Part shown: piece after piece, positions 1,965 to 13,429 of the stretch
How the letters are laid out: every line of letters starts with the position of its first letter
Numbering within the stretch: the stretch's first letter is position 1
NCBI RefSeq assembly: GCF_000381265.1
Contig: NZ_KB906261.1
Span: 186,001-250,000 of the forward strand
Source: Curvibacter lanceolatus ATCC 14669
GTDB lineage: Bacteria > Pseudomonadota > Gammaproteobacteria > Burkholderiales > Burkholderiaceae_C
Length of the DNA stretch: 64,000 nucleotides
Direction of reading: 5' to 3'
Position numbers and translations under genes: made by a program
Notes under the pieces: generated by a model
What the model was told of the DNA's origin: nothing
The model's database searches: none
Seen by the model: the letters and a program-made list of their open reading frames with translations, nothing else

Positions 1965-2939
1965 ATGACCGAATTGACCCTGCCCACCTACGCCGATGTC
2001 GAAGCTGCCGCGGCCCGCCTGGCCGGCCATGCCCACCGCACCCCGGTGCTGCGCTCGCGCACGGCCGATGCGGCCCTGCAGGCCATGCTGTATTTCAAGT
2101 GCGAGAACCTGCAGCGCATGGGCGCCTTCAAGTTTCGCGGCGCCTTCAATGCCCTGAGCCGCTTCAGCGCCGAACAGCGGCGCGCCGGCGTGCTGGCCTT
2201 CTCGTCCGGCAACCACGCCCAGGCGATCGCCCTGTCGGCCCGTGAACTGGGCATGCCGGCCGTGATCGTGATGCCCGCCGACGCCCCGGCCGCCAAGCTG
2301 CAGGCCACCCGCGGCTACAGCGCCGAAGTCATCACCTACGACCGCTACAGCGAAGACCGCGACGCCATCAGCCGCCGCATCGCAGCCGAGCGCGGCATGA
2401 CCCTGATCCCGCCCTTCGACCACGCCGACGTGATCACCGGCCAGGGCACGGCGGCCAAGGAGTTGTTCGACGAAGTGGGCCCGCTCGATGTGCTGCTGGT
2501 CTGCCTGGGCGGCGGCGGCCTGCTGGCCGGCAGCGCGCTGGCTGCACGGGCTCTTTCGCCCGACTGCCGGGTGTACGGGGTCGAACCCGAGGCCGGCAAC
2601 GACGGCCAGCAATCGCTGCGCCGTGGCGAGGTGGTGCACATCGCCCCGCCCCGCACGATTGCCGACGGCGCCCAGACCCAGCACCTGGGGCAGCTCACCT
2701 TCGGCATCATCCGCCGCGATGTCAACGACATCCTGACCGTCAACGACGCCCAACTGGTCGAATCCATGCGTTTTTATGCCGAACGCATGAAGCTGGTGGT
2801 CGAGCCCACCGGCGCCCTCAGCCTGGCTGGCGCCCACCATGGGGGGCTGTCCCTGAAGGGCCTGCGGGTGGGCGTGATCATCAGCGGTGGCAACGTCGAC
2901 CTGCCGCGCTATGCCCAGTTGCTGAGCCAGGGCGTCTGA
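1965..2939 (+). CDS. PLP-dependent serine/threonine dehydratase (IlvA-like, no ACT domain)
   Basis: A 324-residue fold-type II PLP enzyme. The Schiff-base lysine is Lys56 in GAFKFRGA, the substrate loop SSGNHAQ is near residues 82-88, and the phosphate-binding GGGGLLAG is near 183-190. The length matches catabolic or biodegradative threonine/serine dehydratases and threo-3-hydroxyaspartate ammonia-lyases; it lacks the C-terminal regulatory domain of biosynthetic IlvA. The expected reaction is deamination of a hydroxy-amino acid to a 2-oxo acid and ammonia. The exact substrate (L-Ser, L-Thr or hydroxyaspartate) cannot be decided from the sequence. It follows the HerA-like gene closely and ends just before a hairpin. 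Confidence 0.85.
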   Translation: MTELTLPTYADVEAAAARLAGHAHRTPVLRSRTADAALQAMLYFKCENLQRMGAFKFRGAFNALSRFSAEQRRAGVLAFSSGNHAQAIALSARELGMPAVIVMPADAPAAKLQATRGYSAEVITYDRYSEDRDAISRRIAAERGMTLIPPFDHADVITGQGTAAKELFDEVGPLDVLLVCLGGGGLLAGSALAARALSPDCRVYGVEPEAGNDGQQSLRRGEVVHIAPPRTIADGAQTQHLGQLTFGIIRRDVNDILTVNDAQLVESMRFYAERMKLVVEPTGALSLAGAHHGGLSLKGLRVGVIISGGNVDLPRYAQLLSQGV

Positions 2940-3312: not shown

Positions 3313-3337
3313 CAGTCATCCTAAAATATGATGACTG
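3313..3337. promoter_or_regulatory. LysR-type operator with embedded -10 box
   Basis: A perfect inverted repeat CAGTCATC-N9-GATGACTG contains the LTTR signature ATC-N9-GAT, i.e. T-N11-A with T at 3319 and A at 3331. The spacer holds TAAAAT (3322-3327), a good -10 for the regulator, and on the other strand TATTTT, a possible -10 for the divergent DUF2798 gene. Binding here would repress its own gene and control the neighbour, the classical LTTR arrangement. It also argues that the regulator starts at 3358 and not at 3328, inside the operator. Confidence 0.7.
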
Positions 3338-3357
3338 AGGCCTTCCATTCAAAACAC

Positions 3358-4347
3358 ATGACCACCCCTTCCCTGCGCGGCATCGAGGCCTTCATCAAGG
3401 CCGTTGAGGGCGGCAGCATTGCCGCAGCGGGCCGTCAACTGGGCCTGAGCGCGGCGGCGGCCAGCCAGAGCATTGCCCGCCTGGAGGCCGAACTGGGCAC
3501 CCGGCTGCTGCGCCGCAGCACCCGATCCCTGGCCTTGACCGACGAGGGACAGATCTATTTCGAACGGGTGCGCCCGGTGCTCGGGGTGCTGGAGGACGCG
3601 CACGGTGAGATCGGGGCCCTGCGGGGTGAGCCCCAGGGCCGCTTCAAGGTGGCCTGCTCGGTGGCCTTTGGGCGGCATGTGCTGGGGCCCTGGATCACCG
3701 GCTTCATGCAACGCTACCCGCGCCTGAATGTGGAGTTGCTGGTGGTCGACCGCCAGGTCGACTTCATGCACGAGAACGTCGACGCCAGCATCCGCTACCA
3801 GCACATGCTGGAGCCTGGCCTGGTGGCCCGGCGCATCGCCAGCGCCCCCATCCACTACTGCGCCTCGCCGGCCTACCTGAACCGGCATGGGCAGCCGGCC
3901 ACCCTGGAAGACCTGGCCCGGCATCGCTGCCTGGCCTACCGCATGGCCATGGATGGGCGGATCATGCCCTGGCCCTTCATCCGCGACGGGCTGCGCATCG
4001 AGGCGGCCTTTGAGCCCAGCCTCACCTGCAGCGACATCGACACCCTGGCCCAGGCCTGCCTGGCCGGTGCCGGCATTGCGCGCCTGGGCAGTTTTGTGTC
4101 CAACCCGCTGATCGAGTCGGGCGAGTTGATCCCGCTGTTCATCGAACCCGCCATCCCCGGGGGCGCTGAAGCGGCTCAGGCCCATGCCGCGCCCGAGCCG
4201 CTGGAGTTCTATGTGTGCTACCGCGACCGCCAGCATGTGCCCCCCAAGCTGCGCCTGTTCATCGACGAACTCAGCGAGGCCCTGAGTGATCACCCCGGGC
4301 TGCGCATGCCCCGCTGCCCGGGGGCGCCCCGGCCGCCCATTTCTTGA
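3358..4347 (+). CDS. LysR-family transcriptional regulator
   Basis: A 329-residue LTTR. The N-terminal winged helix-turn-helix (about residues 5-63, 'AAGRQLGLSAAAASQSIARLEAELGTRLL' region) is followed by the linker helix and a periplasmic-binding-protein-like effector domain ('GRFKVACSVAFGRHVLGPW' region). It resembles the CrgA/AaeR-like subgroup with a 'TRSLALTDEGQIYFER' motif. The last 25 residues are Pro-rich. It is divergent from the DUF2798 gene and has an LTTR operator just upstream, pointing to autoregulation and control of that gene. The effector is unknown. Confidence 0.92.
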   Translation: MTTPSLRGIEAFIKAVEGGSIAAAGRQLGLSAAAASQSIARLEAELGTRLLRRSTRSLALTDEGQIYFERVRPVLGVLEDAHGEIGALRGEPQGRFKVACSVAFGRHVLGPWITGFMQRYPRLNVELLVVDRQVDFMHENVDASIRYQHMLEPGLVARRIASAPIHYCASPAYLNRHGQPATLEDLARHRCLAYRMAMDGRIMPWPFIRDGLRIEAAFEPSLTCSDIDTLAQACLAGAGIARLGSFVSNPLIESGELIPLFIEPAIPGGAEAAQAHAAPEPLEFYVCYRDRQHVPPKLRLFIDELSEALSDHPGLRMPRCPGAPRPPIS

Positions 4348-4631: not shown

Positions 4632-5261
4632 ATGAGCAACGTCCACGTCATCGACCACCCCCTGGTTCAGCACAAGCTGACCCTGATGCGCAACCGCGAG
4701 GCCAGCACCAACAGCTTCCGCCGCCTGCTCGGCGAACTGGCCAGCCTCATGACCTACGAGATCACCCGCGAGCTGCCGCTGCAGGACATCGAGGTGCAGA
4801 CCCCGCTGGAAACCACCACCGGCCGCGTGATCGATGGCAAGAAGCTGGTGTTCGTGTCCATCCTGCGCGCCGGCAACGGCATCCTGGAAGGCATGCTCAA
4901 CGTGGTGCCCGGCGCCCGGGTCGGCCACATCGGCCTGTACCGCGACCCCGACACGCTCAAGCCGGTCGAGTACTACTTCAAGATGCCCTCCGAGATGACC
5001 GAGCGCGACATCATCGTGGTCGACCCCATGCTGGCCACCGGCAACTCGGCCATCGCCGCAATCGAAAAGCTCAAAGCCCTCAAGCCGAAGTCGATCAAGT
5101 TCGTCTGCCTGCTCACCTGCCCCGAGGGCGTGGCCGCCATGCAGGCTGCCCACCCCGACGTGCCCATCTACACCGCCTCGATCGACCGCCAGCTCAATGA
5201 CCACGGCTACATCCTGCCGGGCCTGGGCGATGCGGGCGACCGGATCTTCGGCACCCAGTAA
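4632..5261 (+). CDS. upp: Uracil phosphoribosyltransferase
   Basis: A 209-residue cytosolic enzyme that converts uracil and PRPP to UMP. The PRPP-binding loop [10 protein letters not shown] is near residues 129-138, the N-terminus has the family's '[13 protein letters not shown]', and the C-terminus has the uracil-binding '[16 protein letters not shown]'. Length and motifs are standard for Upp. It lies 91 bp upstream of a BMP-type nucleobase/nucleoside ABC operon ending in a cytosine-deaminase-like gene. Base import, deamination and ribosylation are therefore encoded together. Confidence 0.97.
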
Positions 5262-5352
5262 ACGCCTCTCACGGCCGCCACGACGGGCCGTCGAAGCCTG
5301 CCGGGCCCGCTCAATTTCGCAACCCCCGCCAACTTTGCCAAAAGGAGCCTTC

Positions 5353-6357
5353 ATGTCCCGTCGTTTCGCCCCGTCCCGCCGCCACCTGATGGTGGCTGCC
5401 ACCGCACTCGCGGCCTCGGTCTCGCTGCCCGCCCTGGCCCAGGCCAAGATCAAGGTGGCGGCGATCTACACCGTGCCCTTCGAGCAGCAGTGGGTGAGCC
5501 GCATCCACAAGGCCCTGAAGGCCGCCGAAGCCCGTGGCGAGATCGAATACAAGGCCAGCGAGAACGTGGCCAATGCGGATTACGAGCGCGTGATGCGCGA
5601 GTACATCGCCGGGGGCAACCAGCTGATCGTCGGCGAGGTGTTCGGCGTCGAGGCAGCGGCCCGCAAGGTGGCCAAGGACTCGCCCAAGACCTCCTTCTTG
5701 CTGGGGTCCTCGGGCAAGCCCCAGGCGCCCAATTTCAGCGTCTTCGACAACTTCATCCAGGAGCCGGCCTACCTCAGCGGCATGGTGGCAGGCGGCATGA
5801 CCAAATCCAACAAGATCGGCATGGTGGGCGGCTTCCCCATCCCCGAGGTGAACCGACTCATGAACGCCTTCATGGCCGGCGCCAAGGAAGTCAACCCCAA
5901 GGTGGAGTTCAGCGTGAGCTTCATCAACAGCTGGTTCGACCCGCCCAAGGCCAAGGAAGCCACCTTCGCCATGATCGACCAGGGCGCCGATGTGCTGTAC
6001 GCCGAGCGCTTTGGCGTCAGCGACGCGGCCAAGGAAAAAGGCAAGCTGGCCATCGGCAACGTGATCAACACCCAGGACAAGTACCCCGACACCGTGGTGG
6101 CGTCTGCGCTGTGGAACATGGAGCCCAGCATCGACCGCGCCCTCAAGCTGGTCAAGGAAGGCAAGTTCAGCGCCGAAGACTACGGCCCCTACTCGATGAT
6201 GAAGCACAAGGGCTCGGAACTGGCCCCCCTGGGCACCTTCGAGAAAAAGGTGCCGGCCGACATCGTGAGCAAGGTGAAGGCGCGTGAGGCCGAGATCCTG
6301 GCCGGCAAGTTCACCGTCAAGGTGGACGACAGCCAGCCCAAATCCAGCGCCAAGTGA
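5353..6357 (+). CDS. BMP-family nucleoside/nucleobase-binding lipoprotein-like ABC substrate-binding protein
   Basis: A 334-residue periplasmic binding protein of the basic membrane protein (Bmp/PnrA) family. The signal peptide is about 30 residues with a twin-arginine-like SRRHLM before the hydrophobic core, ending PALAQA; there is no lipobox Cys, so it is probably a free periplasmic protein. Mature motifs include KIKVAAIYTVPFEQQW and 'NKIGMVGGFPIPEVNRLMNAF'. The start at 5353 has a good AAAGGAG site. BMP proteins bind purine or pyrimidine nucleosides or bases. It is the first gene of an operon with a nucleosidase, ATPase and two permeases; its stop overlaps the next start (TGATG). Confidence 0.92.
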   Translation: MSRRFAPSRRHLMVAATALAASVSLPALAQAKIKVAAIYTVPFEQQWVSRIHKALKAAEARGEIEYKASENVANADYERVMREYIAGGNQLIVGEVFGVEAAARKVAKDSPKTSFLLGSSGKPQAPNFSVFDNFIQEPAYLSGMVAGGMTKSNKIGMVGGFPIPEVNRLMNAFMAGAKEVNPKVEFSVSFINSWFDPPKAKEATFAMIDQGADVLYAERFGVSDAAKEKGKLAIGNVINTQDKYPDTVVASALWNMEPSIDRALKLVKEGKFSAEDYGPYSMMKHKGSELAPLGTFEKKVPADIVSKVKAREAEILAGKFTVKVDDSQPKSSAK

Positions 6358-7301
6358 TGAGACCGCCTGCCTCACCCGGCAAAACGGGGTGGCGCGGCTT
6401 GCTGACGGCGGGCCTGCTGGCCACCGCCTTGGTCGCCCCGCTGCAAGCCGCCCCCTGGCTCGATGCCGTGCCCCGCACGGCCATCGTGTCGGCCTTCGAG
6501 CCTGAACTGGTGCTGCTGCGCTCACAGCTGCGGCAGCCCCGGGTGCACCGTGTCGGCGGGGTCGAGTTCACCACCGGCCGGCTGCAGGGCAAACCGGTGC
6601 TGCTGTTTCTCAGCGGCATCAGCATGACCAATGCCGCCATGAACACCCAGCGCGCGCTGGACCACTTCAAAGTGCGACACATTTTGTTCAGCGGCATTGC
6701 CGGCGGCGTCGACCCGAGCCTGCACATCGGCGACGTGGCCGTGCCGCGGCGCTGGGCACCCTACCTCGAAGGCGTGCTGGCCCGCGAAACAGCCCCAGGC
6801 CAGTACCAGCCGCCGCCCTGGATGAACGATCTGGTCGGCCCGGGCTTCGGCCCCTTCATTCCGCGCACGGTCGAAGTGCGATCCAGCCGCCAGGCCGACA
6901 CCGAACGCAAAGCCTGGTTCGAGGTCGATGCGGCCCTGCTGGCCACCGCCGAGCGCATCGCCCAGACCCCGCTGGAACGCTGCGATGCGCAGCGCCAATG
7001 CCTGAGCCAGGCGCCCCGCGTGGTGGTGGGCGGCAGCGGCGTCTCGGGCGCGGCCTTTGTCGACAATGCCGCCTGGCGCGAATACGCCTTCAACACCTTT
7101 CAGGCCCAGGTGCTCGACATGGAAAGCGCCGCCACCGCCCAGGTGGCTTACAGCAACCGGGTGCCCTTCATTGCCTTCAGATCCCTCAGCGACCTCGCTG
7201 GCGGCGGCGAGGGCGAGAACGAAATGCACACCTTCATGACACTGGCGGCCAGCAATTCGGCGCGGGTTCTGCTGGCTTTTCTGGCGGCCCACCATGACTG
7301 A
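6357..7301 (+). CDS. Exported nucleoside phosphorylase-fold nucleosidase (MTA/SAH nucleosidase-like)
   Basis: A 314-residue protein of the PNP_UDP/MTAN superfamily. A probable signal peptide (basic start, 'LLTAGLLATALVA', ending LQAA) comes before the fold, so the enzyme should act in the periplasm, unlike classical cytosolic MTAN. MTAN landmarks are present: GIAGGVDPSLHIGDV, the substrate-contact DMESAA, and the catalytic Asp in SLSDLA. It is about 70 residues longer than cytosolic MTAN. It overlaps the binding-protein gene by 1 bp and the ATPase gene by 8 bp. I infer that it cleaves nucleosides outside the membrane so that the base can be taken up. The exact substrate is not readable. Confidence 0.85.
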   Translation: MRPPASPGKTGWRGLLTAGLLATALVAPLQAAPWLDAVPRTAIVSAFEPELVLLRSQLRQPRVHRVGGVEFTTGRLQGKPVLLFLSGISMTNAAMNTQRALDHFKVRHILFSGIAGGVDPSLHIGDVAVPRRWAPYLEGVLARETAPGQYQPPPWMNDLVGPGFGPFIPRTVEVRSSRQADTERKAWFEVDAALLATAERIAQTPLERCDAQRQCLSQAPRVVVGGSGVSGAAFVDNAAWREYAFNTFQAQVLDMESAATAQVAYSNRVPFIAFRSLSDLAGGGEGENEMHTFMTLAASNSARVLLAFLAAHHD

Positions 7302-8871
7302 GGCCCCAGGCACAGCCCCGGTGCTGCAATTGCAGGGCATCACCAAGCGCTTTGGCAGCCTGGTGGCCAACGACAACATCTCGCTGAGCCTGAACGCGGG
7401 CGAGGTACTGGCCTTGCTGGGCGAAAACGGCGCCGGCAAATCCACCCTGATGTCCATCCTGTTCGGCCACTACCGGGCCGATGCCGGTCACATCACCCTG
7501 CACGGCCAGCCCCTGCCGCCCGGCAACCCGGCCGCCGCCCTGGCCGCCGGCATCGGCATGGTGCACCAACACTTCACGCTGGCCGACAACCTCAGCGTGC
7601 TGGACAACGTGATCCTGGGCACCGAACCCCTGTGGCAGCCCTGGTCGGCCCGGGCCCGCGCCCGGGCCCGCCTGCTGGAGGTCGGCCAGCGCTTTGGCCT
7701 GGCTGTGCAGCCCGAGGCCCGGGTGGGCCAGCTCTCGGTGGGCGAGCGCCAGCGGGTCGAGATCCTCAAGGCCTTGTACCGGGGCGCGCGCATCCTGATC
7801 CTGGACGAGCCCACGGCCGTGCTCACCCCGCAAGAGAGCGAAGCCCTGTTCGACACCCTGGCCCAGTTGGTGCGCGAGGGCCTGTCGGTGATCTTCATCA
7901 GCCACAAGCTGGCCGAGGTGCTGCGCGTATCGCACCGGGTGGCCGTGCTGCGGGCTGGCCGCCTGGTGGCCGAGGCCCCGGCCGCCGGCACCAGCCAGGC
8001 CCAGTTGGCGCAATGGATGGTGGGCCACGCCGTGTCGGCGCCCGAACGCCGCCCCGCCGGCGCACCGGGCCCGGTGGCGTGTGAGCTGCGCCAGGTCAGC
8101 ACCCCGGCCGGCCAGCGCGAGCGCCTGAGCCAGGTCAACCTGCAACTGCGAGCCGGCGAGATCGTGGCGATTGCCGGGGTGTCGGGCAATGGGCAACTGG
8201 CACTGGCCGAGTTGCTGTGCGGCAGCCGCCGCGCCGCCCAGGGCGAGGTGCTGCTCAAGGGGCAGCCACTGCAAGCCTCCCCCGCCTGGCTGGTCACCCA
8301 GGGGGTGGCCCGCATTCCCGAAGACCGGCACGCCGTGGGCGTGGTCGGCGATCTGCCGGTGTGGGAGAACGCCGTCTCCGAACGCCTGCGCCACCCCGTG
8401 TTCTCGCGCTGGGGTTGGGTGCGCCGGGCCGTGGCCCGGCAGCATGCCCAGCGGGTGATCGAGGCCTTCGACGTGCGCGGCGCCGGGCCCCTGAGCCCGG
8501 CCCGGGCCCTGTCGGGCGGCAACATGCAAAAACTCATCCTGGGCCGCGCCCTGCTGCCCCTGCCCGGGCAGGCGGCCAGCCAGGTGCCCACCCTGATCGT
8601 GGCCCACCAGCCCACCTGGGGGCTGGACATCGGGGCCGTGGCCTATGTGCAGCAACAGTTGCTGGCCGCCCGTGATGCCGGGGCCGCCGTGCTGCTGATC
8701 TCCGATGACCTGGACGAGGTGCTGGCCCTGGGCGACCGCATTGCGGTGATGCACCACGGCCACCTGAGCCCGGCCCACCCGGCCACCCACTGGAGCCGCG
8801 AAAGCATCGGCCTGGCCATGGCCGGTGGCCCGGTCAGCGCCCCCGCCCAGCGCATGACGGAGACCCCATGA
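7294..8871 (+). CDS. Nucleoside/nucleobase ABC transporter, double ATP-binding protein
   Basis: A 525-residue protein with two fused ABC domains, as in RbsA/YufO-type ATPases. Domain 1 has an intact Walker A GENGAGKS (residues 43-50), signature LSVGERQRVEI and Walker B ILILDEP. Domain 2 has the family's degenerate Walker A (GVSGNGQL), signature LSGGNMQKLILG and 'AHQPTWGLD' in place of a standard Walker B, as is common in this subfamily. It powers uptake with the two following permeases. Start and stop overlap the neighbours (8 bp and 4 bp), indicating tight translational coupling. Confidence 0.94.
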   Translation: MTEAPGTAPVLQLQGITKRFGSLVANDNISLSLNAGEVLALLGENGAGKSTLMSILFGHYRADAGHITLHGQPLPPGNPAAALAAGIGMVHQHFTLADNLSVLDNVILGTEPLWQPWSARARARARLLEVGQRFGLAVQPEARVGQLSVGERQRVEILKALYRGARILILDEPTAVLTPQESEALFDTLAQLVREGLSVIFISHKLAEVLRVSHRVAVLRAGRLVAEAPAAGTSQAQLAQWMVGHAVSAPERRPAGAPGPVACELRQVSTPAGQRERLSQVNLQLRAGEIVAIAGVSGNGQLALAELLCGSRRAAQGEVLLKGQPLQASPAWLVTQGVARIPEDRHAVGVVGDLPVWENAVSERLRHPVFSRWGWVRRAVARQHAQRVIEAFDVRGAGPLSPARALSGGNMQKLILGRALLPLPGQAASQVPTLIVAHQPTWGLDIGAVAYVQQQLLAARDAGAAVLLISDDLDEVLALGDRIAVMHHGHLSPAHPATHWSRESIGLAMAGGPVSAPAQRMTETP

Positions 8872-9929
8872 GACTGGAGAAACGACACCAGACCTCGCCC
8901 CTGGCCCATGTGCTGGCCCCCCTGGGGGCCATCGCCTTCACCCTGCTGATCAGCGCCCTGCTGGTGTTGTGGGCGGGGGCCCCGGTGGGGCGCACCTATG
9001 GCCTGCTGGTGCAGGGGGGCTTCGGCTCGCTGTTCGCCTGGAGCGAGACCCTGACCCGCGCCACCCCCCTCATCTTCACCGGCCTGGCGGCGGCCGTGGC
9101 CTTCCGCGCCCGCCTGTTCAACATCGGCGCTGAGGGCCAACTGTATGCCGGCGCACTGGCCGCCGTGGCCGTGGGGGGCGTGCACGACAGCGCTGGCTGG
9201 GCCTTGCCCCTGCCCCTGCTGTTCACCCTGATGCTGCTGGCAGCCGCCGCGGCCGGTGCCCTGCTGCTGCTCGGGCCGGCGCTGCTGAAAAGCCGGCTGG
9301 GCGTGGACGAGGTGGTCACCACCCTGCTGCTCAATTTCATGGCCTTGCTGGGCGTGTCAGCGCTGCTGGACGGCCCCATGAAAGACCCCACGGCGCTGGG
9401 CTGGCCGCAGAGCGTGGCCCTGCAGCCCGAGCTGGAGCTGTCGCGCCTGATCGAGGGCACCCGGGTGCACACCGGCTTGCTGCTGGCGGCGGCGCTGTGC
9501 CTGGGCGTGTGGGTGCTGATGCGCTTCACCGTGCTGGGCTTCGACATCCGGGCCACGGGTGCCAACGCCCGCGCGGCCGCCTTTGCCGGGGTGGCCACCG
9601 GGCGCACCGCCCTGTTGGTGGCGGTGCTGTCGGGGGCCCTGGCCGGCCTGGCGGGGGCCATCGAGGTGGCCGGCCGCACCAGCTACGTGACGCTGGACAT
9701 GTCGCCCGGCTACGGCTACAGCGGCATCGTGATCGCCATGCTGGCCGGGCTGCACCCCTTGGGCGTGCTGGCCGCCAGCATCTTTGTGGCCGGCGTGCAG
9801 GTGGGCGCCGACAGCATGAGCCGCGCCGTGGGCGTGCCCACCTACATCGCCGACGTGATCGTGGCGGCCTCGCTGCTGTCGGTGCTGGTGGCCACCCTGC
9901 TCACGCAATACCGGGTGCGCCTGAAATGA
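8868..9929 (+). CDS. Nucleoside/nucleobase ABC transporter permease 1 (BmpC/YufP type)
   Basis: A 353-residue inner-membrane permease of the branched-chain amino acid/ribose permease fold. Family landmarks are FNIGAEGQLYAGA, the coupling segment 'GVDEVVTTLLLNFMALL', and 'ANARAAAFAGVATGRTALLVAVLSGALAGLAGA'-type sequence around residues 225-260 (quoted only to locate the coupling helices). Nine or ten membrane segments are visible. It overlaps the ATPase gene by 4 bp and the second permease by ATGA, so it forms the transport channel with that partner. Confidence 0.92.
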   Translation: MRLEKRHQTSPLAHVLAPLGAIAFTLLISALLVLWAGAPVGRTYGLLVQGGFGSLFAWSETLTRATPLIFTGLAAAVAFRARLFNIGAEGQLYAGALAAVAVGGVHDSAGWALPLPLLFTLMLLAAAAAGALLLLGPALLKSRLGVDEVVTTLLLNFMALLGVSALLDGPMKDPTALGWPQSVALQPELELSRLIEGTRVHTGLLLAAALCLGVWVLMRFTVLGFDIRATGANARAAAFAGVATGRTALLVAVLSGALAGLAGAIEVAGRTSYVTLDMSPGYGYSGIVIAMLAGLHPLGVLAASIFVAGVQVGADSMSRAVGVPTYIADVIVAASLLSVLVATLLTQYRVRLK

Positions 9930-10849
9930 CCGAACTGCTCGACATCCTGGCCCAACCCGCCTTCTGGGTGGCCGTGCTGCGCATTGCCACACCGCTGATC
10001 TTCGGCACCCTGGGCGTGCTGCTGTGCGAACGCGCCGGCGTGCTCAACCTGGGCATCGAAGGCATCATGGTCGCAGGGGCCTTTGCCGGCTGGCTGGGGG
10101 TGTACCTGGGCCTGCCGCTGTGGGGCGGCGTGGCCGTGGCCGCCCTGACGGGGGCCGCCTTCGGCCTGCTGCACGCGGCGCTCACCGTCGGCCTGGCCCT
10201 GTCGCAACACGTGGCGGGGCTGGGCATCACCCTGCTGGCCACCGCGCTCAGCTACTACGGCTACCGGGTCAGTTTCCCCAAGGTGAACACCCCGCCCACC
10301 ATCACCCCTTTCGCCCCCATGGAGGGGCTGGGCATCCCGGTGCTGTCGGCCCAGACCCCACTCACCCTGCTGGCCCTGCTGCTGGTGCCGGCCCTGGCCT
10401 GGTGGCTGTACCGCACCCCGTCGGGTCTGGCGCTGCGCATGGTGGGCGAGAACCCGCAGGCCGCCGAGGGCCAGGGCCTCAGCGTGGGCCGCACCCGCAC
10501 TGCGGGCATCGTGGCCGGCTCGGCCCTGATGGGGGTGGCGGGCTCATTCCTGACCCTGTCGGCCTTCAACGCCTTTTTCTTCAACATGGTCAATGGCCGG
10601 GGCTGGATCTGCGTGGCCCTGGTGGTGTTTGCCTCGTGGCGGCCCGGCAAGGCCTTGCTCGGGGCCCTGCTGTTCGCCTTCTTCGACGCGCTGCAGCTGC
10701 GCCTGCAGCAATCCGGGGGCAGCACCCTGCCCTACCAGCTCTACCTGATGCTGCCCTATGCGCTGTCGATCCTGGCCTTGGTGGTGGTGGCGCGCAAGGC
10801 CAGCTACCCCCAGGCCCTGATGAAACCCTACCGCAAGGGTGAGCGCTGA
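9926..10849 (+). CDS. Nucleoside/nucleobase ABC transporter permease 2 (YufQ type)
   Basis: A 307-residue inner-membrane permease paired with the preceding one. It starts at the ATGA overlap (ATG 9926), giving MTELLDILAQPAFW. Landmarks are GVLNLGIEGIMVAGAFAG, which marks the second permease of BMP-type systems, and NGRGWICVALVVFASWRPGK near residues 225-245. About eight to nine hydrophobic helices are present. It is followed 36 bp later by the CodA-like deaminase gene. Confidence 0.93.
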   Translation: MTELLDILAQPAFWVAVLRIATPLIFGTLGVLLCERAGVLNLGIEGIMVAGAFAGWLGVYLGLPLWGGVAVAALTGAAFGLLHAALTVGLALSQHVAGLGITLLATALSYYGYRVSFPKVNTPPTITPFAPMEGLGIPVLSAQTPLTLLALLLVPALAWWLYRTPSGLALRMVGENPQAAEGQGLSVGRTRTAGIVAGSALMGVAGSFLTLSAFNAFFFNMVNGRGWICVALVVFASWRPGKALLGALLFAFFDALQLRLQQSGGSTLPYQLYLMLPYALSILALVVVARKASYPQALMKPYRKGER

Positions 10850-10885: not shown

Positions 10886-12157
10886 ATGCTTGACCTTCTG
10901 ATCCAACACGTGAACCTGCCCGACGGCCGCCGCGACCAATCGGTGGCGGTGCAGGACGGCCGCATTGTCGAAGTGGCCGCCGGCCTGCAGGCCCAGGCCC
11001 ACGAGACCCTGGACGGCCAAGGCCGGCTGCTGAGCCCGCCTTTCGTGGATGCGCACTTCCACATGGACTCCACGCTCAGCTACGGCCTGCCCCGCATCAA
11101 CCAGAGCGGCACCCTGCTGGAAGGCATTGCCCTGTGGGGCGAGCTCAAGCCCCATTTGACCCACGAGGCCATCGTGCAACGGGCTCTGAGCTACTGCGAC
11201 TGGGCCGTGGCCCGCGGACTGCTGGCCATCCGCTCGCATGTGGATGTGTGCGATGACCGCCTGCTGGCGGTGCAGGCCCTGCTGGAGGTCAAGAAGACCG
11301 TGGCGCCCTACCTCGACCTGCAGCTGGTGGCCTTTCCGCAGGACGGGGTGCTGCGCTCGCCCAACGCCCTCCACAACCTGAAGCGCGCCCTGGACCTGGG
11401 GGTGGAGGTGGTGGGCGGCATTCCGCACTTCGAGCGCACCATGGCGCACGGCGCCGACAGCGTGAAACTGCTGTGCGAACTGGCGGCCGACCGCGGCCTG
11501 CTGGTGGACATGCACTGCGACGAGTCCGACGACCCGCTGTCGCGCCATGTGGAAACCCTGGCCGCGGAAACCCACCGCCTGGGGCTGCACGGCCGGGTCA
11601 CCGGTTCGCACCTGACCTCCATGCACAGCATGGACAACTACTACGTCAGCAAGCTGCTGGCCCTGATGGCCGAAGCCCAGCTGGGCGTGGTGGCCAACCC
11701 GTTGATCAACATCACCCTGCAGGGCCGCCACGACAGCTACCCCAAGCGCCGTGGCATGACCCGCGTGCCTGAGCAGCTGGCCGCCGGCCTGACCGTGGCC
11801 TTTGGCCACGACTGCGTGATGGACCCCTGGTACAGCCTGGGCTCGGGCGACATGCTGGAGGTGGCCAGCATGGGCCTGCACGTGGCTCAGATGACCAGCC
11901 AGGCCGCCATGCGCCAGTGCTACGAGGCCGTGACCACGGCGCCAGCACGCCTGCTGCACCTGGACGGCTACGGCATCGCCCCCGGCTGCCACGCTGACTT
12001 TGTGCTGCTCGACGCCCGCGACCCAATCGAGGCGCTGCGCCTGCGCCCGCCCCGCTTGCGCGTCTACCGCCGTGGGAAATGCATTGCGCAATCGCAGCCG
12101 GCGGTCAGCACCTTGCACCTGCCAGGCCGCCCCGACAGCACGGCCTTCCGAAGCTGA
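10886..12157 (+). CDS. codA: CodA-family amidohydrolase, predicted 5-methylcytosine/cytosine deaminase
   Basis: A 423-residue metal-dependent amidohydrolase close to E. coli cytosine deaminase throughout. Metal and catalytic residues are present: HxH (His57, His59), Gln152 in AFPQDG, His210 and Glu213 in HCDESDD, and Asp309 in FGHD. The residue after Asp309 is Cys310, where E. coli CodA has Asp314 next to the catalytic Asp313. Work on CodA homologues has linked loss of this 'discriminating' Asp to deamination of 5-methylcytosine to thymine. I therefore infer activity on 5-methylcytosine, with cytosine or another pyrimidine still possible. It is last in the nucleobase-uptake operon. Confidence 0.85.
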   Translation: MLDLLIQHVNLPDGRRDQSVAVQDGRIVEVAAGLQAQAHETLDGQGRLLSPPFVDAHFHMDSTLSYGLPRINQSGTLLEGIALWGELKPHLTHEAIVQRALSYCDWAVARGLLAIRSHVDVCDDRLLAVQALLEVKKTVAPYLDLQLVAFPQDGVLRSPNALHNLKRALDLGVEVVGGIPHFERTMAHGADSVKLLCELAADRGLLVDMHCDESDDPLSRHVETLAAETHRLGLHGRVTGSHLTSMHSMDNYYVSKLLALMAEAQLGVVANPLINITLQGRHDSYPKRRGMTRVPEQLAAGLTVAFGHDCVMDPWYSLGSGDMLEVASMGLHVAQMTSQAAMRQCYEAVTTAPARLLHLDGYGIAPGCHADFVLLDARDPIEALRLRPPRLRVYRRGKCIAQSQPAVSTLHLPGRPDSTAFRS

Positions 12158-12187: not shown

Positions 12188-13429
12188 TCAGCCCAGCGCC
12201 TGGGCAAAGTCGGCGATCAGGTCGTCGGCCTCTTCCAGCCCGACCGACAGGCGGATCATGCTGTCGGCAATGCCCATGCCGGCGCGCACCTCGGCGCCGG
12301 CCTCCCAGAAGATGGTGTGGGCCACGGGGATGATCAGGGTGCGGGTGTCGGCCAGGCCGGTGGCCTTGATGGGCAGCTGCAGGCGGTTGCACAGGCCCAG
12401 GCAGTCGTCGGCGTTCTTCAGCTCAAACGACAGCAGCCAGGAGCCGGCCTTGAAATGCTCACGCGCGCGCTCGTACTGCGGGTGCGACGGCAGGCCGGGG
12501 TACAGCACACGGGCCACCGCAGGGTGCTGCTCCAGCCACTGCGCCAGGGCCAGGGCGGTGGCGCTGGTGCGGCCCATGCGCAGTGCCAAGGTCTCGGCGC
12601 CGGTGGCCAGCTGGTTGGCCGCATGCGAAGACAGCGTGCCACCCATGTCGCGCAAGCCCTTCTTGCGGATCTGTTGCAGGCCCCAGCCCTTGGCGTCGCC
12701 CTTGCGGTAGGAGGCAAAGATATTGGGATAGCCGGCCCAGTCGAACAGGCCGGTGTCGGTGACCGAGCCGCCGAGCGCGTTGCCATGGCCGCCGATGCTC
12801 TTGGTCAGCGAGTGGATCACCAGACCAGCGCCCACGCTGCGCGGCTTGAACAGGTAGGGCGAGGCCACGGTGTTGTCGACCACGTAGAGCAGCCCCTTGT
12901 CGCGACACAGCTGGCCGATGCCGGCCAGATCGGCCACCTGGGTGCCGGGGTTGGCAATGGTCTCGACAAACACCATGCGGGTGTTGGGCCGCACGGCCGC
13001 AGCCACCTGGGCGGCGTCGGTGGCGTCCACCGTGCTCACCTGGATGCCCAGGTCGGCCAGGGTGCCGAAGATGCTGTTGGTGTTGCCGAACACGAAACGG
13101 CTGGCCACCAGGTGGTCGCCCGCCTTGAGCAGGGTCAGGAACACGGCGCAGATGGCCGCCATGCCGGTGGAGAAGCTGATGCTGCCCAGGCCCTGCTCCA
13201 TCTGGGTGAGCTTGGCCTCCAGCGCGGCCGTGGTGGGCGTGCCCTGGCGCGCGTAGTTGAAGCCGCCCTTGGCGGTGCCCTGGAACACGGCAATCAGGTC
13301 TTCGACGCGCTCGAAGCCGTATTGCACCGAGTTGTGCACGGGCTTGTGCACGCCACCATGTTCCACGTTGCCGCGGCGGTCGGCGTGGACGATCTGGGTG
13401 GTGAAGCCGTTGGTGTGGGTGTCGGTCAT
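12188..13429 (-). CDS. Cystathionine gamma-synthase family PLP enzyme
   Basis: A 413-residue Cys/Met-metabolism PLP enzyme (fold type I). The PLP lysine is Lys210 in HSLTKSIGGHG. Other landmarks are 'FNYARQGTPTTAALEAKL', 'SFSTGMAAI', 'VETIANPG' and 'VVDNTVASPYLF', plus the C-terminal 'GMGIADSMIRLSVGLE' segment. The family includes cystathionine gamma-synthase/lyase and O-succinyl/acetylhomoserine sulfhydrylase. The member cannot be settled from motifs, so the general name is kept. It converges with the deaminase gene across 30 bp and follows sbcB by 36 bp on the same strand. Confidence 0.9.
   Translation of the reverse strand: MTDTHTNGFTTQIVHADRRGNVEHGGVHKPVHNSVQYGFERVEDLIAVFQGTAKGGFNYARQGTPTTAALEAKLTQMEQGLGSISFSTGMAAICAVFLTLLKAGDHLVASRFVFGNTNSIFGTLADLGIQVSTVDATDAAQVAAAVRPNTRMVFVETIANPGTQVADLAGIGQLCRDKGLLYVVDNTVASPYLFKPRSVGAGLVIHSLTKSIGGHGNALGGSVTDTGLFDWAGYPNIFASYRKGDAKGWGLQQIRKKGLRDMGGTLSSHAANQLATGAETLALRMGRTSATALALAQWLEQHPAVARVLYPGLPSHPQYERAREHFKAGSWLLSFELKNADDCLGLCNRLQLPIKATGLADTRTLIIPVAHTIFWEAGAEVRAGMGIADSMIRLSVGLEEADDLIADFAQALG

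What the first reader, a model, noticed from the sequence alone, without database searches (positions are those of the whole stretch)
10886..12157. CodA homologue missing the cytosine-discriminating Asp: predicted 5-methylcytosine deaminase
Seen: all catalytic residues of CodA are present, but the residue after the catalytic Asp309 is Cys310 (codon 11813-11815) instead of Asp. Known: in E. coli CodA this position is Asp314, and homologues without it were shown to deaminate 5-methylcytosine to thymine (Raushel-group work, recalled from memory). Inference: with an uptake system and nucleosidase in the same operon, this looks like a route for salvaging methylated bases from environmental DNA.
Basis: partly seen in the sequence, partly recalled or inferred. 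Interest (0 to 1): 0.7.

Follow-up and report, generated by a model that had tools for sequence, protein, structure and literature searches.

The report
Cysteine-type cytosine deaminase in uracil operon
This gene encodes a relative of the E. coli enzyme that turns cytosine into uracil; one active-site residue differs in a way that may let it also accept methylated cytosine, but its neighbour genes point to ordinary cytosine and uracil recycling.

Summary
ORF 10886-12157 (+) encodes a 423-residue CodA-like amidohydrolase with the catalytic residues kept, and Cys310 sits where E. coli CodA has Asp314. This is not local: Cys fills that column in 133 of 133 distinct proteins of the clade (NCBIfam PRK07572), which lies apart from CodA (Asp) and the Klebsiella 5-methylcytosine deaminase (Ser). 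Activity on 5-methylcytosine is plausible but untested. The salvage story is weaker. In five relatives, among them Cupriavidus, Azospirillum and one of the window's own family, URC1 and URC4 (uracil catabolism) stand in the same cluster. No PF00265 thymidine kinase was found in the genome, so thymine has no evident route to dTMP; it could be degraded by the PreTA-hydantoinase genes present. Best reading: a cytosine-to-uracil deaminase with an altered pocket in a pyrimidine uptake and salvage operon, 5-methylcytosine being a likely side substrate. Against: no assay, upp linkage in a minority of loci, and a second, distant deaminase relative in the genome. Low to moderate interest.

The parts
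3328..4347 (+). LysR-family regulator, possible regulator of the operon
   Evidence: Pfam HTH_1 + LysR_substrate; same strand, 284 bases before upp. Role inferred.
4632..5261 (+). upp, uracil phosphoribosyltransferase, the only UPRTase match in the genome
   Evidence: NF001097 293 bits, cut-off 114; PF14681 own-genome search, 1 match.
5197..6357 (+). BMP/PnrA-type periplasmic substrate-binding protein (ORF; likely real start near 5353)
   Evidence: PF02608 4.4e-37; alignment with L103 and L195 proteins suggests the start (inference).
6354..7301 (+). nucleosidase/phosphorylase of the PNP_UDP_1 superfamily, MTA/SAH-nucleosidase-like
   Evidence: PF01048 2.1e-43; TIGR01704 95 bits over cut-off 73.8, PRK05584 131 bits under 169.
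7294..8871 (+). ABC transporter ATPase with two ATP-binding domains
   Evidence: PF00005, 2 stretches.
8868..9929 (+). ABC transporter permease
   Evidence: PF02653.
9926..10849 (+). ABC transporter permease
   Evidence: PF02653.
10886..12157 (+). CodA-like deaminase of the Cys-type clade (PRK07572)
   Evidence: NF005748 792 bits, cut-off 438; CodA alignment.
11813..11815 (+). codon of Cys310, the CodA Asp314 column
   Evidence: Cys in 133 of 133 clade proteins.

Best explanation
A metal-dependent cytosine deaminase of a Cys-type branch of the CodA family. It hydrolyses cytosine to uracil and ammonia. A BMP-type ABC transporter imports pyrimidine bases or nucleosides, and the nucleosidase probably frees a base. 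UPRTase (upp) turns uracil into UMP, and the PreTA-hydantoinase pathway encoded elsewhere can degrade the rest for nitrogen. Cys in place of Asp314 enlarges or neutralises the pocket beside the ring, so 5-methylcytosine and 5-fluorocytosine are probably accepted as well. Shown here: family, residue, clade-wide invariance, gene order, pathway gene content. Inferred: substrate, transporter cargo, nucleosidase substrate, side activity.
For: CodA homology with catalytic residues kept. Cys in 133/133. upp heads the operon and is the genome's only UPRTase match. upp is in the fetched flanks of 9 of 125 loci, URC1 and URC4 in 4 of 125, including L195 of the same family: URC1-URC4-upp-BMP-NUC-ATP-PRM-PRM-DEAM on one strand. 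A further named case, Cupriavidus sp. EM10 (best plasmid hit), has URC1-URC4-upp-BMP-ATP-PRM-PRM-DEAM on one strand and the Cys. URC1/URC4 degrade uracil and URC6 of that pathway is a UPRTase (PMC3869809 and PMC7530994 passages). In L194 upp lies 3.7 kb from the deaminase although no BMP-type set was found there. No genome in 398 has both a Cys-type (47) and an Asp/Ser-type (41) enzyme (at most four candidates scored per genome), as if they fill one niche. No PF00265 thymidine kinase in this genome or in 24 of 47 Cys-type genomes, including all 9 of this family. Reductive pyrimidine cluster present.
Against: No Cys-type enzyme with a measured substrate was found here, and no solved structure of one among the 17 PDB sequences matched. 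upp is in only 9 of 125 loci: eight from the window's own order and one Azospirillum; in most alphaproteobacterial loci the deaminase is linked to the transporter alone, and 43 of 125 lack linked ABC genes. upp is a general salvage gene. The own genome lacks URC4. 23 of 47 Cys-type genomes do have a thymidine kinase, and nucleoside kinases of other families were not searched. The genome holds a second, distant relative (C8:50008-51165, 31% identity; best NCBIfam model PRK07583 'cytosine deaminase', 309 bits under its cut-off 403), so this enzyme need not be the only cytosine deaminase. The exclusivity of types and the URC4 association (8 of 47 vs 17 of 351, Fisher p 0.005) are confounded by taxonomy. 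An invariant Cys suggests a task that a plain CodA would not need.
Confidence: 0.62

Rival explanations
1. Dedicated 5-methylcytosine deaminase: the operon takes up methylated bases or nucleosides, the enzyme makes thymine, and thymine is degraded by the PreTA-HydA pathway.
For: Asp314 is missing; CodA Asp->Ala gains 5-methylcytosine activity and the K. pneumoniae enzyme has Ser there (PMC6186785). Reductive pathway genes are in the genome and lie in the flanks of 4 of 127 loci. A second, distant deaminase relative could take cytosine. From memory, three of three tested non-Asp homologues (Hitchcock 2014) acted on 5-methylcytosine.
Against: upp and URC genes in the clusters act on uracil or UMP. 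No PF00265 thymidine kinase, so no evident return to dTMP. 5-methylcytosine activity does not imply loss of cytosine activity.
Confidence: 0.15
2. Deaminase for another base (isoguanine, 5-hydroxymethylcytosine, isocytosine or a related heterocycle); the invariant Cys and the changed residues at CodA 82, 218 and 316 define a different pocket.
For: Consistent changes across the clade: F82->L in 132/133, I218->T/S in 132/133, F316->L/M/R in 133/133. Closest named BMP and permease families are putative vitamin B6 transporters, below cut-off. Seven alphaproteobacterial loci carry an amidase.
Against: upp and URC linkage; metal ligands and substrate-binding Gln156/Glu217/Asp313 as in CodA.
Confidence: 0.18
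3. The operon salvages nucleosides generally; the deaminase is a minor member.
For: BMP-family binding protein and PNP_UDP_1 nucleosidase.
Against: The nucleosidase is in 2 of 125 loci, while two or more of the ABC genes lie near the deaminase on its strand in 82 of 125, so the deaminase is the constant partner.
Confidence: 0.05

Closest known systems
E. coli cytosine deaminase CodA (PRK09230; PDB 1K6W)
   Same: Family, metal ligands, Gln156, Glu217, His246, Asp313, Trp319.
   Different: Asp314 is Cys, Phe316 is Met, Phe82 is Leu; PRK09230 score 438 under its cut-off 483; its partner is a BMP-type ABC transporter (in E. coli the permease CodB, recalled).
K. pneumoniae 5-methylcytosine deaminase Kpn00632 (PDB 4R7W/4R85/4R88)
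   Same: CodA family without Asp at column 314.
   Different: Ser, not Cys: CFAQDSIQDPWY. Its near relative L104 (803 bits to 4R7W), which stands for it in the tree, falls with CodA and outside the Cys rows.
NCBIfam PRK07572 cytosine deaminase subfamily
   Same: 792 bits against a cut-off of 438.
   Different: No difference found; this is the family it belongs to. I saw no assay behind the family's name.
URC uracil-catabolism clusters (URC1, URC4, UPRTase)
   Same: Same upp-BMP-ABC-deaminase block in L044, L103, L195 and in Cupriavidus L200.
   Different: No URC1 or URC4 in the 22 kb searched around the window's operon, and no URC4 in the genome.

Membership tests
CodA-type cytosine deaminase (amidohydrolase superfamily) | Metal ligands and catalytic set H61, H63, H214, E217, H246, D313 and substrate Gln156 | tested here: met
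   All identical; 133/133 in the clade.
CodA-type cytosine deaminase (amidohydrolase superfamily) | Asp at column 314 | tested here: not met
   Cys310. A feature of the E. coli-type branch, not of the whole family: 11 of 19 Asp/Ser-type rows have Ser.
CodA-type cytosine deaminase (amidohydrolase superfamily) | Deaminates cytosine | not testable with these tools
   Needs an assay.
5-methylcytosine deaminase | CodA homologue without Asp at column 314 | tested here: met
5-methylcytosine deaminase | Groups with a characterised 5-methylcytosine deaminase | tested here: inconclusive
   Not with the Kpn00632 type. R. sphaeroides Rsp0341 and C. glutamicum NCgl0075 (names recalled) could not be placed: sequences not obtained.
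5-methylcytosine deaminase | Turnover of 5-methylcytosine to thymine | not testable with these tools
   Needs an assay.
PRK07572 subfamily | Score over curated cut-off | tested here: met
   792 vs 438 bits.
8-oxoguanine / isocytosine deaminase group | Closer to that group than to CodA | tested here: not met
   8-oxoguanine deaminase model PRK08203 34.6 bits against cut-off 532, versus PRK07572 792. No separate isocytosine model was tested.
URC uracil-catabolism cluster | URC1 and URC4 beside a UPRTase | tested here: not met
   upp present, URC4 absent from the genome; met in five relatives.

The most novel reading that the evidence does not exclude
The Cys-type clade, spread over Alphaproteobacteria and the Burkholderiales and often paired with its own ABC transporter, is a third specificity class beside the Asp (cytosine) and Ser (5-methylcytosine) classes, selected for a 5-substituted cytosine released from methylated DNA or RNA, with the invariant Cys shaping the pocket; catabolism of the modified base would then be a common bacterial trait hidden under the name cytosine deaminase.
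Probability: 0.15. Interest if true: 0.55.

Novelty: new member of a known kind. Interest (0 to 1): 0.3.

Why it matters
A single, clade-wide active-site change in a widespread enzyme now named simply cytosine deaminase gives a clean test of how far one residue predicts substrate. If the clade prefers cytosine, the rule 'no Asp314 means 5-methylcytosine deaminase' predicts activity but not biological role; if it prefers modified cytosines, a common route for breaking down DNA-methylation marks has been overlooked. Enzymes that accept 5-fluorocytosine are also of interest for prodrug work.

Tried and rejected
Mutation, pseudogene or sequencing error at codon 310: rejected, Cys is invariant in the clade.

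8-oxoguanine/isocytosine or creatinine subgroup as refuter: the 8-oxoguanine model scores far below its cut-off; isocytosine and creatinine deaminases were not tested with models of their own.

'Only CodA-like protein in the genome': I first read so; rejected after a re-check. A distant relative on C8 covers most of the model and is nearest to PRK07583 'cytosine deaminase', under its cut-off. It reads SDNVQDPF at the motif, with Asn at column 314.

Placing Rsp0341 and NCgl0075: no sequence obtained. Rsp0341 is in no held paper; Hitchcock 2014 is not held.

Literature: in ten full-text searches no listed title or abstract start dealt with a Cys-type enzyme or this operon; the library is open-access only. 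Papers seen: PMC6186785 (outline, Discussion section, passages); PMC12430217, PMC3869809, PMC7530994 (passages); the others as search listings. Hitchcock 2014 is recalled, and as cited in PMC6186785 (which numbers the residue Asp315).

Gene calling by longest ORF and by codon-position G+C gave poor neighbourhoods in these G+C-rich genomes; replaced by tblastn with reference proteins. The promoter scan found none, and terminator-like sites were 5 against 3.0 (sd 1.7) in shuffles. No structure was predicted: CodA and 4R7W homology already gives the fold, and a model would not settle the substrate.

Full report
Observation. The ORF at 10886-12157 (+) encodes 423 residues. Against the PDB sequences it matches E. 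coli CodA (391 bits for the best variant chain, 390 for 1k6w) and then Kpn00632/4R7W (338 bits), with N-isopropylammelide hydrolases far behind (127 bits and less). The alignment puts Cys310 on CodA Asp314; the metal ligands, Gln156, Glu217, His246, Asp313 and Trp319 are kept. CodA Phe316, two residues on, is Met.

The residue marks a clade. NCBIfam places the protein in PRK07572 (792 bits, cut-off 438) and not in the E. coli-type PRK09230 (438, cut-off 483). I fetched and aligned 19 of those 41: 8 have Asp and 11 have Ser at column 314. Kpn00632 itself has Ser, seen in the 4R7W sequence, in agreement with PMC6186785. A tree of 76 rows separates 54 Cys rows from 21 Asp/Ser rows; the Cys branch has support 92/86, under the tool's star, the root is by midpoint only, and the tool flagged four long branches and a possible false join of L100 with the Cys side. 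In a wider set of 166 loci (133 distinct proteins), 133 of 133 have Cys. Column 316 varies (Leu 75, Met 49, Arg 9), so the Cys is under stronger constraint than a near neighbour. Phe82 of CodA is Leu in 132 of 133.

Operon. LysR (3328-4347), upp (4632-5261), BMP binding protein (ORF 5197-6357, likely start near 5353), nucleosidase (6354-7301), ATPase (7294-8871), permeases (8868-9929, 9926-10849), deaminase (10886-12157), all on the + strand; from the binding protein on they overlap or lie within 36 bases. The next gene, at 12188-13429, is on the other strand. upp is the only UPRTase match in the genome.

Neighbourhoods elsewhere. References were searched by tblastn in 127 loci, 125 after dropping two that repeat a genome. 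Seventy-seven of 125 have the whole BMP-ATPase-permease-permease set on the deaminase's strand; 82 have at least two of the three ABC genes; 43 do not, many of them Mesorhizobium, and some of those contigs end close by. upp is in 9 (eight from the window's own order, and Azospirillum), URC1 and URC4 in 4 (L043, L044, L103, L195), the nucleosidase in 2 (window included), an amidase over 40% identical to the rhizobial one in 7. In L195 (window's family) and L103 (Azospirillum sp. TSH58, annotated) URC1, URC4 and upp lead into the transporter and deaminase. Afterwards I looked at the best plasmid hit, Cupriavidus sp. EM10 (Betaproteobacteria, Burkholderiales): URC1, URC4, upp, BMP, ATPase, both permeases and the deaminase lie in that order on one strand, with the same Cys. 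In L194 upp lies 3.7 kb from the deaminase, with chemoreceptor and phosphonate-binding-type genes between and a TRAP transporter beyond, and no BMP system. Genes of the reductive pyrimidine pathway lie within the fetched flanks in 4 of 127 (L053, L058, L061, L121). Absence near the gene is not absence from the genome.

What the neighbours say. URC1 and URC4 degrade uracil and URC6 of that pathway is a UPRTase (PMC3869809, PMC7530994 passages). UPRTase does not, by established knowledge, use thymine. So where URC and upp accompany the deaminase its product should be uracil and its substrate cytosine. URC4 (PF07958) is in 8 of 47 Cys-type genomes and 17 of 351 others (Fisher p 0.005, not corrected for relatedness), and absent from the window's genome. 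That genome has no PF00265 thymidine kinase, and neither do 24 of the 47 Cys-type genomes, all 9 of its own family among them; the other 23 do have one. Its best thymidine-phosphorylase match is under the cut-off (193 of 409 bits). It does have PreT, PreA, an NCS1 transporter, a hydantoinase and an M20-family protein side by side on C18, a pathway that by established knowledge takes both uracil and thymine. Hence 5-methylcytosine could be catabolised; by known routes it could hardly feed dTMP.

A result against my reading: the genome holds a second, distant relative at C8:50008-51165 (31% identity; 122 bits to PRK07572). Its best NCBIfam model is PRK07583, also named cytosine deaminase, at 309 bits under a cut-off of 403. 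So the argument that the window's enzyme must be the cytosine deaminase because nothing else could be is not available.

Verdict. The enzyme most likely deaminates cytosine in vivo and probably also 5-methylcytosine and 5-fluorocytosine in vitro, because changes of Asp314 to Ala or Ser open that door (PMC6186785 for 5-methylcytosine; 5-fluorocytosine from recall). I could not find the residue in Rsp0341 or NCgl0075, the other two assayed 5-methylcytosine deaminases (recalled); if either is Cys-type, the prediction of activity moves from plausible to shown for the clade. The claim that the operon salvages methylated bases from environmental DNA is not supported by its gene content.

Noticed in passing
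   Followed up: yes
window 6354-7301; L195: The MTA/SAH-nucleosidase-like protein occurs in the cluster in only 2 of 125 loci (window and L195); its substrate is unclear.
   Followed up: partly
L046, L047, L048, L078, L079, L105, L107: In these loci an amidase (PF01425 in L107) sits between the binding protein and the ATPase; it may act on a ring-opened pyrimidine or another substrate.
   Followed up: partly
L195 9663-12476 (-): A 937-aa ORF with polysaccharide deacetylase, caspase and TPR domains lies inside the transporter cluster, next to the binding-protein gene.
   Followed up: no
L104: An Enterobacter roggenkampii plasmid carries a Ser-type enzyme close to Kpn00632 (803 bits to 4R7W) with codB, PucR and LysR genes, between IS1 transposases.
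   Followed up: no
L002 1303-2970 (-), i.e. G000 C8: Distant deaminase relative in the window's genome, nearest to PRK07583 but under its cut-off, Asn at the CodA-314 column.
   Followed up: partly
window 1965-2939 and 12188-13429: Neighbours outside the operon: threo-3-hydroxyaspartate ammonia-lyase (PRK07048) and a cystathionine gamma-synthase family protein (PRK05939).
   Followed up: no
genomes G001, G004, G008: The window's genus includes genomes of 2.3-2.5 Mb, against 6.8 Mb here, with only weak partial matches to the deaminase family.
   Followed up: no
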